Below are positions 51,423 to 54,751 of a stretch of 64,000 bases of DNA, in pieces. Source of the DNA: Burkholderia pyrrocinia (GTDB taxonomy: Bacteria; Pseudomonadota; Gammaproteobacteria; Burkholderiales; Burkholderiaceae). Every line of letters begins with the position of its first letter. Positions within the stretch are counted from its first letter, which is position 1. Under the pieces are notes generated by a model that was not told where the DNA came from, did no database searches, and saw only the letters and a list, made by a program, of their open reading frames with translations. The stretch covers positions 930,001 through 994,000 of the forward strand of contig NZ_CP094460.1 of the NCBI RefSeq assembly GCF_022809715.1, read 5' to 3'. The position numbers were made by a program, and so were the translations under genes.

Positions 51423-51758
51423 ATGAAGCATCGCCTGTTCGCCGCCTCGTTCGCTCTGGCTGCCTCGCTTCTGGCCACGTCCTCGTCCTTTGCCGCCGGC
51501 GCGTCCGGCACCATCTACTTCTCCGGCATGATCGTCGAGCCGCCCTGCTCGTTCGCGCTCGATACGCCCAACGCCGCGCCCGCTCGCGTGCGCGCCGACT
51601 GCCCGCGGCCGGCAACCGGCCAGATCGCGTTCGTCGACGCGGCGAGCATGCAGGCCGTCAAGACCACGACCTTTACTCAGGCCTCGCGCGCAATCGTTTT
51701 ACCGAACCGTCCGGGCAACAATCTCGCGCCGATGATCGCCGTCGTGACCTACCAGTAA
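51423..51758 (+). CDS. Secreted type 1 pilin-like protein, short
   Basis: 111 residues with a Sec signal (MKHRLFAASFALAASLLATSSSFAAG). The mature start GTIYFSGMIVEPPCSFAL and the paired Cys (PPC, ADC) follow the type 1 fimbrin pattern (GxIxFxGxIxxxxC). Fimbrins are about 170-180 residues and end in a Tyr-containing beta strand; this one ends VVTYQ but lacks the middle third. There is no chaperone or usher gene nearby. It is either a divergent small secreted protein or a shrunken orphan pilin. Confidence 0.75.
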   Translation: MKHRLFAASFALAASLLATSSSFAAGASGTIYFSGMIVEPPCSFALDTPNAAPARVRADCPRPATGQIAFVDAASMQAVKTTTFTQASRAIVLPNRPGNNLAPMIAVVTYQ

Positions 51759-52777: not shown

Positions 52778-53677
52778 TCAGGCCGTTGCGGCCAGTGCGC
52801 CCGCCGCGATGCGCGCCGCCGATGCGACGACGTCCGCGCGAGCCGCAGCGTCGGCCTGCGGCTGCGTGAACGACACGGCCATCACGAGCGGCGCGCGCGA
52901 CGGCGGCCACAGCACCGCGACGTCGGTCGTCGTGCCGTACCCGCCCGTGCCGGCCTTGTCCGCGACGCGCCAGCCGGGCGGCACGCCCGCCGCAATGCCG
53001 GTCGCGCCGCGCGCGCCGCCGACCATCCATTCCGTCAGTTGCGCGCGCTGCGGTTCGCGCAGCGTGTCGCCGAGCAGCAGCCGCTGCAGCGTGTCGACCA
53101 TCGCGACCGGCGTCGACGTGTCGCGTTCGTCATCCGGCACGGCCTTGTTCAGTTCGGGTTCCCAGTGATCGAGGCGAAACGTCGTGTCGCCGCTCTCGTG
53201 TGCGAACGACGTGACGGCCTGCGGGCCGCCGAGCACGCCCATCAGCAGGTTGCCCGCGCCTTTGTCGCCCGAGCGCAGCATCGCGTCGCAAAGCTGCGCG
53301 ATCGTCATGCCCGTGTCGACATGGCTTTCCGTGATCGGCGAACCCGACACGACTTCGTAGCGACGGTACAGGATGCGGCGCGGCAGCAGCGACGCGTCGA
53401 GCGCGCCGCGCGCGAGTATCGCGCCGGCGGCGACGACCGCATACGTGCCGCACAAAGGAAAGCGCTCGCGCGCGTGGTGGGCGATGCGCACGCCGTTCGA
53501 CGTATCGAGCGCGGCGACGCCGAGCCGGCCGTTCGACGCTTTCTCGAGTGCGGCGAGTTCGGCTTGCGCGGCGTGGGCGCGCCCCTGGTCGGCGACCGGC
53601 GCTGACGTGCACGCGGCGACGAACGGTGCGGCAACGGCGGCAAGCAACAGCGAGCGGCGTGTCGGAGAGTGTTCCAT
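52778..53677 (-). CDS. Class A beta-lactamase homologue with lost catalytic residues, Tat lipoprotein
   Basis: 299 residues from ATG 53677. The signal SPTRRSLLLAAVAAPFVAAC combines a twin-arginine motif with a lipobox (Cys23). The class A fold is unmistakable (SGSPITESHVDTGMTIAQLCDAML, WEPELN, GYGTTTDVAVLWP), but the active site is changed: at Ser70/Lys73 it reads C-G77-T-Y-A80, SDN is G137-D138-K139, and KTG is K241-A-G. Only Glu166 (E173 in WEPELN) and Lys234 remain. It cannot work as a serine lactamase. It may bind without hydrolysis, or serve another role. I would not call it a resistance gene. Confidence 0.93.
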   Translation of the reverse strand: MEHSPTRRSLLLAAVAAPFVAACTSAPVADQGRAHAAQAELAALEKASNGRLGVAALDTSNGVRIAHHARERFPLCGTYAVVAAGAILARGALDASLLPRRILYRRYEVVSGSPITESHVDTGMTIAQLCDAMLRSGDKGAGNLLMGVLGGPQAVTSFAHESGDTTFRLDHWEPELNKAVPDDERDTSTPVAMVDTLQRLLLGDTLREPQRAQLTEWMVGGARGATGIAAGVPPGWRVADKAGTGGYGTTTDVAVLWPPSRAPLVMAVSFTQPQADAAARADVVASAARIAAGALAATA

Positions 53678-53887
53678 GGATGAGGTGTGTTCTGTCGGAA
53701 ACGATGGCACGAAGCAACGCGGGCGCGCATCGGCGATGCACGCCCGTTCACGCCGACGGCCGCCCGCGACGGCATTCGTCGCCGCATCCCCGAAAGACGC
53801 TCGTCGGCCCCGCGCGAAGCGCGGGATTCGCAAACAGCCCCTAGCCTAGCAGCGACAGTCGTCGCGTTCCAGCAGAACGGCCCGGCT

Positions 53888-54751
53888 TCATCCTTGCGAA
53901 GAAGGCAGATACGGCATCGGATTCACCGGCTTGCCGTCGCGCCGCACCTCGAACAGCAGCGCGACGCGCGAATTGTCGAGGTCGCCCATCTCGGCGATCG
54001 CATCGCCCTGGCGCACGATGTCGCCCGTCTTCACGAGCAGCTTGCGGTTATGCGCATAGGCGGTCAGGAAATCCGCGTTGTGCTGGACGATGATCAGGCT
54101 GCCGTAATCGTTCAGGCCGGTGCCCGCGTACATCACGCGGCCGTCGGCCGCCGCGCGAACCGGGTCGCCCGGCCGGCCGGCGATCTGGATGCCGCGGTTC
54201 TGGCCCGGCCGAAACCCCTCGACGATCTTGCCGTTTGCGGGCCACTTGAGCGCGACGCCGCCCGCATGCCGCTTCGTTTCCTTCACGACCTGACGGTCGC
54301 TCGCCGTCGATGCGGTTGCCTGTGCCGTTGCCTGATTGCCGGCCACCGCATCGCTCGCCGCGGCCGGCGCGGCGGCCTGCGTGCCGGCCGTGCCCGACGA
54401 CGGCGGCAGCGGCTGCTGCCTGACGATGCGCAGCACCTGCCCCTTGCGCAGCTTGCCGTTCGCGCCCAGCTTGTTCCAGGTGCGCAGGTCGGCAACGCTG
54501 CAGTTGTTCGCGGACGCGATGCCCGTCAGCGTGTCGCCGCGTTTCACGACGTACTTTTGCGCGACGAGAATCGGCGCCGGCGGCAGCGTGGCGGCCGACG
54601 GCGCAGCGACGGGCTGGCTCGACGGCGACGGCTGCCCCGCCAGCGTGTCGCTCGGCGGGACGGACTGCGTATTTGCACAACCGGCCATGACGAGCACGGC
54701 GGCCAGGCCCGGCAGCCACGCCGCGTTGCGGCAAATCTCGCGCGTTTTCAT
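53888..54751 (-). CDS. NlpD-like LysM/M23 lipoprotein, probable amidase activator
   Basis: 287 residues. Lipobox MAGC (Cys25) follows the signal; the LysM domain is about 67-112 (YVVKRGDTLTGIASANNCSVADLRTWNKL). An Ala/Thr linker leads to the M23/LytM domain (about 160-285). The zinc ligands are altered as in E. coli NlpD: NRGIQIAG for the His/Asp motif and LLFEVR for HxH, with AYAHN kept. So it should activate amidases rather than cut. It acts in the periplasm or at the outer membrane during cell separation. There is no rpoS/pcm context. Confidence 0.93.
   Translation of the reverse strand: MKTREICRNAAWLPGLAAVLVMAGCANTQSVPPSDTLAGQPSPSSQPVAAPSAATLPPAPILVAQKYVVKRGDTLTGIASANNCSVADLRTWNKLGANGKLRKGQVLRIVRQQPLPPSSGTAGTQAAAPAAASDAVAGNQATAQATASTASDRQVVKETKRHAGGVALKWPANGKIVEGFRPGQNRGIQIAGRPGDPVRAAADGRVMYAGTGLNDYGSLIIVQHNADFLTAYAHNRKLLVKTGDIVRQGDAIAEMGDLDNSRVALLFEVRRDGKPVNPMPYLPSSQG

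What the first reader, a model, noticed from the sequence alone, without database searches (positions are those of the whole stretch)
52778..53677. A class A beta-lactamase that has lost its active site but kept its fold
The 299-residue protein aligns with class A lactamases throughout, but Ser70 is Gly77, Lys73 is Ala80, SDN is GDK (137-139) and KTG is KAG (241-243); only Glu166 (E173) and Lys234 (K241) remain. The frame is intact, a Tat-plus-lipobox signal is present and codon use is normal, so it seems maintained as a non-hydrolytic protein. It may bind beta-lactams or muropeptides as a sensor or scavenger; that function is my speculation.
Basis: partly seen in the sequence, partly recalled or inferred. 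Interest (0 to 1): 0.8.

Follow-up and report, generated by a model that had tools for sequence, protein, structure and literature searches.

The report
PenA*, a dead beta-lactamase kept alive
The gene is a real but already published "dead" relative of an antibiotic-destroying enzyme, carried by Burkholderia cepacia-type bacteria; evolution still protects the protein although its active site is gone, and its job is unknown.

Summary
The protein has a class A beta-lactamase fold but lacks Ser70, Lys73, Ser130 and Asn132. It is already known: PMC7157819 (2020) calls it PenA*, shows that the B. ubonensis protein hydrolyses neither nitrocefin nor ampicillin, that deletion changes none of four MICs, and that three beta-lactams do not induce it. 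Two orthologues are in the PDB (5IHV, 5HX9). Added here: the loss is one ancient event (53 of 53 orthologues among 65 genus genomes; one clade, sister to active PenA at the same nlpD1 locus). All 53 genomes also carry the active paralogue PenB; none was found in the 9 genomes with an active nlpD1-linked PenA. PenA* is under strong purifying selection (omega 0.095; PenB 0.183; 22 genomes), but its former substrate pocket is no longer specially conserved, unlike PenB's. NlpD1, encoded just upstream, is the best candidate partner; that step is inference (about 0.3).

The parts
52778..53677 (-). penA* : 299-residue class A beta-lactamase pseudoenzyme (the finding)
53609..53677 (-). residues 1-23: twin-arginine signal and lipobox VAAC (Cys23), present by pattern in 53 of 53 orthologues
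53438..53449 (-). residues 77-80 G-T-Y-A where class A enzymes have S70-x-x-K73
53357..53380 (-). residues 100-107 RRILYRRY (Ambler 93-100); all but residue 102 invariant in 53 of 53 PenA*; Ambler 96-100 vary in PenB; candidate new functional surface, statistically only suggestive
53261..53269 (-). residues 137-139 G-D-K where class A enzymes have S130-D-N132
53147..53161 (-). residues 173-177 E-P-E-L-N, omega loop kept (E166 53 of 53, N170 52 of 53)
52949..52957 (-). residues 241-243 K-A-G at the KTG site; Ambler 234, 235 and 237 vary between orthologues
53678..53887 (-). 210-bp nlpD1-penA* intergenic region with GC-rich inverted repeats
53888..54751 (-). nlpD1: LysM/M23-type (dLytM) lipoprotein gene, upstream, same direction; domain reading from PMC6045580 and from the sequence; transcribed with penA in B. 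pseudomallei according to PMC6045580
51805..52680 (-). LysR-type regulator gene downstream, same strand; in 53 of 53 PenA* loci and 6 of 9 active-PenA loci

Best explanation
This is PenA*, the positional orthologue of PenA of the pseudomallei group, which lost catalysis once, before the cepacia-complex lineages split, in genomes that carry a second, active, PenR-linked enzyme (PenB). Inferred working: the product is exported by Tat and anchored by its lipobox cysteine, probably in the outer membrane facing the peptidoglycan. It lacks the nucleophile and so cannot form the usual acyl-enzyme. It is kept for its folded body and surface, not for its old pocket: most likely as a non-catalytic protein-binding partner in the cell envelope, with the co-encoded amidase activator NlpD1 as the likeliest partner. 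How likely: identity 0.97; retention by purifying selection 0.95; pocket-independent (protein-binding) role 0.55; NlpD1 as the partner 0.3. Shown here: sequence, distribution, selection, pocket relaxation. From papers: lack of activity, no MIC effect, no induction. Inferred: location, partner and function.
For: Catalytic residues absent in 53 of 53 orthologues found in 65 genus genomes. PenA* is one clade (100/100), sister to active PenA at the same locus (joint clade 99/91), apart from PenB (71 of 120 sequences). Active-PenA loci share the neighbourhood: nlpD1 upstream in 9 of 9, the LysR gene downstream in 6 of 9. All 53 PenA* genomes also hold PenB. Omega 0.095 against PenB 0.183, NlpD1 0.162, LysR 0.047 in the same 22 of 53 genomes. 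Changes at 23 pocket positions: PenA* 56 of 703, PenB 27 of 753, Fisher P 4e-4; at 11 core positions, chosen after, 33 against 0. Lipobox present in 53 of 53 PenA*, while 3 of 53 PenB copies lack the cysteine. Rate covariation on 49 of 53 genomes, 6 genes: PenA*-NlpD1 is the highest of 15 pairs (rho 0.44). Fold kept: model mean pLDDT 90, 5IHV 1.3 A rmsd. No activity, no induction, no MIC effect: PMC7157819 passages.
Against: No source I read reports an interaction of PenA* with NlpD1 or any protein. Two genomes (G025, G052) keep nlpD1 and the LysR gene with no beta-lactamase gene between them, so NlpD1 does not need a partner there. In B. thailandensis penL was expressed and induced differently from the nlpD1 orthologue, from a promoter of its own (PMC9426598 passages), which weakens the operon argument. 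Rate covariation also links PenA* with LysR2 (0.30) and PenB (0.29), and neighbours share history. The RRILYRRY patch: clustering of frozen sites P 0.003, but their number (21) is not above chance (24.4), and two further tests gave no significance (permutation P 0.25; 85% of circular shifts as extreme). [quoted passage not shown] the passages do not name this gene).
Confidence: 0.55

Rival explanations
1. Non-covalent beta-lactam or muropeptide binder (sensor or scavenger): the emptied pocket still holds ligands and reports or sequesters them.
For: Fold kept. Glu166 and Gly236 invariant, Asn170 in 52 of 53. Engineered S70G CTX-M enzymes hold beta-lactams in crystals (entry titles). In 5IHV an ethanediol takes over the contacts of the lost Lys73 (PMC12073871 passages).
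Against: The pocket is no more conserved than the rest of the protein (mean rate 0.98 against 0.91, permutation P 0.65) while PenB's is (0.45 against 0.90, P 0.009). Positions 234, 235 and 237 changed 6, 11 and 8 times in PenA* and never in PenB; position 220 is Gly in 53 of 53 PenA* and Arg in 52 of 52 PenB. No MIC effect and no induction.
Confidence: 0.15
2. A different catalytic activity has replaced beta-lactam hydrolysis, using for instance the invariant Glu166 and the new residue at 132.
For: Glu166, Asp131 and Gly220 invariant; position 132 is K in 50, R in 2 and Q in 1 of 53.
Against: Several positions around the pocket vary freely; no catalytic dyad is evident; no substrate is suggested by the neighbourhood.
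Confidence: 0.08
3. Evolutionary relic: no function, kept only by its position behind nlpD1.
For: No phenotype in the passages I saw; the gene can be absent from the locus.
Against: Omega 0.095 over 22 genomes, about half that of the active PenB; intact frame with stop codon in 53 of 53; signal and lipobox kept.
Confidence: 0.04

Closest known systems
PenA* of Burkholderia cepacia complex bacteria (Somprasong et al. 2020, PMC7157819; first noted for B. multivorans by their ref 23, Becka et al. 2018, not read)
   Same: Same gene: same lost motifs, EXXLN kept, non-canonical K(T/R/A)G, nlpD1 operon position, Tat and lipobox
   Different: Nothing essential. The window orthologue is one more member; the genus-wide distribution, omega and pocket-relaxation figures are added here
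PDB 5IHV (B. ambifaria) and 5HX9 (B. vietnamiensis); 'inactive beta-lactamase group' of PMC12073871
   Same: 91% and 86% identical in the structure alignment; 5IHV has the same L-C-G-T-Y-A, GDK and KAG motifs
   Different: 5HX9 reads KRG at the KAG site
PenA / PenI / PenL of the B. pseudomallei group (active)
   Same: Same locus next to nlpD1 and sister clade
   Different: Has Ser70, Lys73, SDN and KTG; 52-56% identical; no PenB found in those genomes
PenB of the B. cepacia complex (active, PenR-linked)
   Same: Class A fold, Tat signal, about 48-56% identical; present in all 53 PenA* genomes
   Different: Active motifs, divergent LysR neighbour in most loci, pocket strongly conserved

Membership tests
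Class A beta-lactamase (as an active enzyme) | Ser70-x-x-Lys73 | tested here: not met
   G-T-Y-A; position 70 Gly 51, Ala 2 and position 73 Ala 52, Thr 1 of 53 orthologues
Class A beta-lactamase (as an active enzyme) | Ser130-Asp-Asn132 | tested here: not met
   G-D-K in the window; Ser130 in 0 of 53 and Asn132 in 0 of 53
Class A beta-lactamase (as an active enzyme) | Glu166 and Asn170 in the omega loop | tested here: met
   E 53 of 53, N 52 of 53
Class A beta-lactamase (as an active enzyme) | Lys234-Thr/Ser-Gly236 | tested here: not met
   KAG in the window; Lys234 in 47 of 53, Thr/Ser235 in 9 of 53, Gly236 in 53 of 53
Class A beta-lactamase (as an active enzyme) | Hydrolysis of a beta-lactam | not testable with these tools
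   Published negative for the B. ubonensis orthologue (PMC7157819 passages)
Class A beta-lactamase superfamily (as a fold and lineage) | Sequence and structural homology over the whole domain | tested here: met
PenA* group | nlpD1 upstream in the same direction | tested here: met
   Window, and 52 of 53 orthologous loci; the remaining one (L061) is cut by its contig end
PenA* group | Conserved replacement motifs plus Tat signal and lipobox | tested here: met
PenA* group | Descent from the PenA lineage, not PenB | tested here: met
   Clade PenA*+PenA 99/91, PenA* 100/100 (71 of 120 sequences)
Partner of the amidase activator NlpD1 | Physical or functional interaction with NlpD1 | tested here: inconclusive
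   Rate covariation rho 0.44, highest of 15 pairs, but linked neighbours and only 6 genes

The most novel reading that the evidence does not exclude
A beta-lactamase turned into a non-catalytic envelope adaptor: with PenB carrying resistance, the nlpD1-linked copy was freed from its pocket and fixed as a lipoprotein that binds NlpD1 or its amidase through a surface including the RRxLYRRY segment, so that cell separation is modulated by a former resistance enzyme.
Probability: 0.2. Interest if true: 0.65.

Novelty: already known. Interest (0 to 1): 0.33.

Why it matters
PenA* is a clean natural example of an antibiotic-resistance enzyme that lost catalysis once and was then kept. The 2020 paper states that its authors do not know why it is maintained. 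The comparison here narrows the question: selection acts on the protein but not specially on the former pocket, so a search for beta-lactam ligands looks less promising than a search for protein partners. Practical point: NCBIfam's general class A model still scores it above its cut-off (288.7 against 200), so automatic annotation can count a non-resistance gene as a beta-lactamase.

Tried and rejected
Recent decay: rejected, 53 of 53 orthologues lack the residues, and the 29 of them put in the tree form one clade. Convergent loss elsewhere: none in the 17 non-genus loci that passed E 1e-90 (398 family genomes searched, genus members included; motifs), nor in 43 further named relatives; these are relatives above a cut-off, not all class A enzymes.

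Local conserved patch: frozen sites cluster (7 of 21 within 15 residues, P 0.003), but the number of such sites (21) is not more than expected by chance (24.4, sd 3.4), and the window test gave permutation P 0.25 and 85% of circular shifts as extreme. I keep it as a lead only.

Rate covariation: the first run used a LysR2 query translated in the wrong frame (my coordinate error) and is void for LysR2; one search repeats it in the right frame. In 'LysR2' therefore marks only the presence of that DNA. In one search PenA*-NlpD1 (0.33) did not stand out from PenA*-PenB (0.33).

Intergenic RNA structure: strong GC-rich stems in each sequence but a poor consensus fold over the 44 regions of 150-300 bases that were aligned, of 52; not pursued. 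In one search the lipobox pattern counted 47 of 53 PenB; reading the six misses, 3 lack the cysteine (L112, L128, L135) and 3 have NAC; L150, counted as a hit, has an uncertain start and probably a false match.

Choices made after seeing data: the 23 pocket positions are recalled class A positions, listed after the motif table had been seen; the 11 'core' positions were chosen. One search left three rows (L108, L110, L150) out of its 52-row PenB set; one search used L150.

Paper searches for a function of PenA*: searches listed no paper that by its title or abstract gives one; the library holds open-licence papers only, and 2 of 10 searches were unused. Papers seen as passages only: PMC12073871, PMC7157819 (plus its section 10), PMC6045580, PMC9426598, PMC10412643.

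Full report
1. What is there. The frame at 52778-53677 is on the minus strand, 299 residues, no internal stop. It scores on Pfam Beta-lactamase2 and Beta-lactamase and above the cut-off of NCBIfam bla_class_A, but below the cut-offs of the specific PEN models among the 25 of 94 matches shown.

2. It is already known. The best PDB matches are 5IHV and 5HX9, titled as beta-lactamases of B. ambifaria and B. vietnamiensis and released in 2016. PMC12073871 (passages) puts 5IHV in an 'inactive beta-lactamase group' of two structures. PMC7157819 (passages; section 10) names the gene PenA*. It reports the same missing motifs in five species; no growth on ampicillin and no nitrocefin hydrolysis for the B. 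ubonensis protein made in E. coli; unchanged MICs of meropenem, imipenem, ceftazidime and amoxicillin after deletion (all but ceftazidime at the top of the range, so only a fall could have shown); no induction by imipenem, meropenem or ceftazidime; and an nlpD1 operon position. Its authors write that they do not yet know why the bacteria maintain it.

3. Distribution. In 65 genomes of the genus (the window's own included) every genome has a class A match at E 1e-20. I fetched and read the motifs of 53 orthologues (L032-L084): position 70 is Gly in 51 and Ala in 2, position 73 Ala in 52 and Thr in 1, Ser130 in none, Asn132 in none. All 53 also have a PenB-type gene at another locus. Of the other 12 genomes, 9 have an active-motif PenA beside nlpD1 and no PenB-type match at the 1e-20 cut-off; one of the 9, G014, has a further, distant class A gene. 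Two (G025, G052) have active-motif enzymes elsewhere and an nlpD1-LysR junction without a beta-lactamase gene. One (G057, 82% complete) shows only a class A fragment at a contig end and could not be judged. A named scan gave 75 loci: 32 PenA* (all without Ser70 and Lys73), including B. cenocepacia, B. cepacia, B. ambifaria, B. dolosa, B. ubonensis, B. stagnalis and B. guangdongensis, and 43 relatives, all with Ser70 and Lys73. In the family, 17 loci outside the genus that passed E 1e-90 all carry Ser70 and Lys73.

4. History. A maximum-likelihood tree of 71 of 120 sequences (29 of 53 PenA*, 9 of 9 nlpD1-linked active PenA, 30 of 55 PenB-type, 3 of 3 others) has PenA* as one clade (100/100) on a stem of 0.4, sister to active PenA (joint 99/91), with PenB separate; two PenB-type rows (L108, L110) branch deeper. 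With the shared neighbourhood (nlpD1 in 9 of 9 active-PenA loci, the LysR gene in 6 of 9) this makes PenA* the positional orthologue of the pseudomallei-group PenA and the loss a single ancient event. No ancestral sequence was made.

5. Selection. In 22 of the 53 genomes (every second of the first 44 loci), codon-model omega is 0.095 for PenA*, 0.183 for PenB, 0.162 for NlpD1 and 0.047 for the LysR gene; pairwise NG86 medians are 0.189, 0.320, 0.288 and 0.093 over 231 pairs each. A first run without kappa and without rate variation gave 0.134 for PenA*. So the dead enzyme is more constrained than the living one.

6. What is conserved. Over 23 recalled pocket positions the mean site rate in PenA* (53 sequences) is that of the mature protein (0.98 against 0.91, P 0.65), whereas in PenB (52 sequences) it is half (0.45 against 0.90, P 0.009). 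Parsimony steps in the same 53 genomes: pocket 56 of 703 in PenA* against 27 of 753 in PenB, P 4e-4; the core 11 positions 33 against 0. The loss of conservation is concentrated at 234, 235, 237 and 216; some pocket positions (104, 105, 167, 244, 276) changed less in PenA* than in PenB, and 69, 71, 131, 166, 220, 236 and 238 never changed. My reading is that the scaffold around helix 2 and the omega loop is needed for folding while substrate-carboxylate recognition is not needed. Lys73 to Ala and Asn132 to Lys go together; that the new lysine fills the lost charge is my inference and untested.

7. A possible new surface. Twenty-one positions never change in PenA* but change five times or more in PenB; seven lie within Ambler 86-100 (P 0.003). 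The total of 21 is not more than chance, and window tests were not significant. The segment RRILYRRY is therefore a lead, not a result. From memory (no call), the neighbouring loop of TEM-1 is part of the surface gripped by the inhibitor protein BLIP, which would show that this side of the fold can bind proteins.

8. Mechanism. The keeping of signal and lipobox (53 of 53; signal region 25 steps against 49 in PenB, P 0.017) says that export and anchoring matter. The co-directional nlpD1 gene, co-transcribed with penA in B. pseudomallei according to PMC6045580 (passages), and the highest rate covariation of 15 gene pairs (rho 0.44) make NlpD1 the best candidate partner. Against it: linked genes share history, LysR2 and PenB also correlate (0.30, 0.29), nlpD1 can live without the gene, and in B. 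thailandensis penL is induced separately from nlpD1 (PMC9426598 passages). I put NlpD1 partnership at 0.3.

Noticed in passing
L246 1495-3304 and L247 1495-3321 (genomes G052, G025): nlpD1 and the LysR gene stand side by side with no beta-lactamase gene between them, though both genomes carry class A enzymes elsewhere: either loss or absence of the gene at this locus.
   Followed up: partly
own genome G000:C2:1324097-1325011 (L002, L092): The active-motif paralogue PenB with a divergent LysR-type neighbour.
   Followed up: yes
L112, L128, L135: Three of 53 PenB copies have lost the lipobox cysteine and may be soluble periplasmic enzymes, whereas no PenA* of 53 has.
   Followed up: no
G052, G025, G047, G063, G064, G014 (L089-L091 fetched): A further, distant class A match (39-42% identical) in six genus genomes; the three fetched have Ser70, Lys73 and SDN.
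   Followed up: no
window 53678-53887: GC-rich inverted repeats between nlpD1 and penA*, at the place of the attenuator described for B. pseudomallei penA, without an obvious T run.
   Followed up: partly
window 51423-51758: Small secreted-looking protein gene facing the LysR gene, matched in 53 of 53 PenA* loci and at 45-48% in three active-PenA loci and in G025 and G052; function unknown.
   Followed up: no
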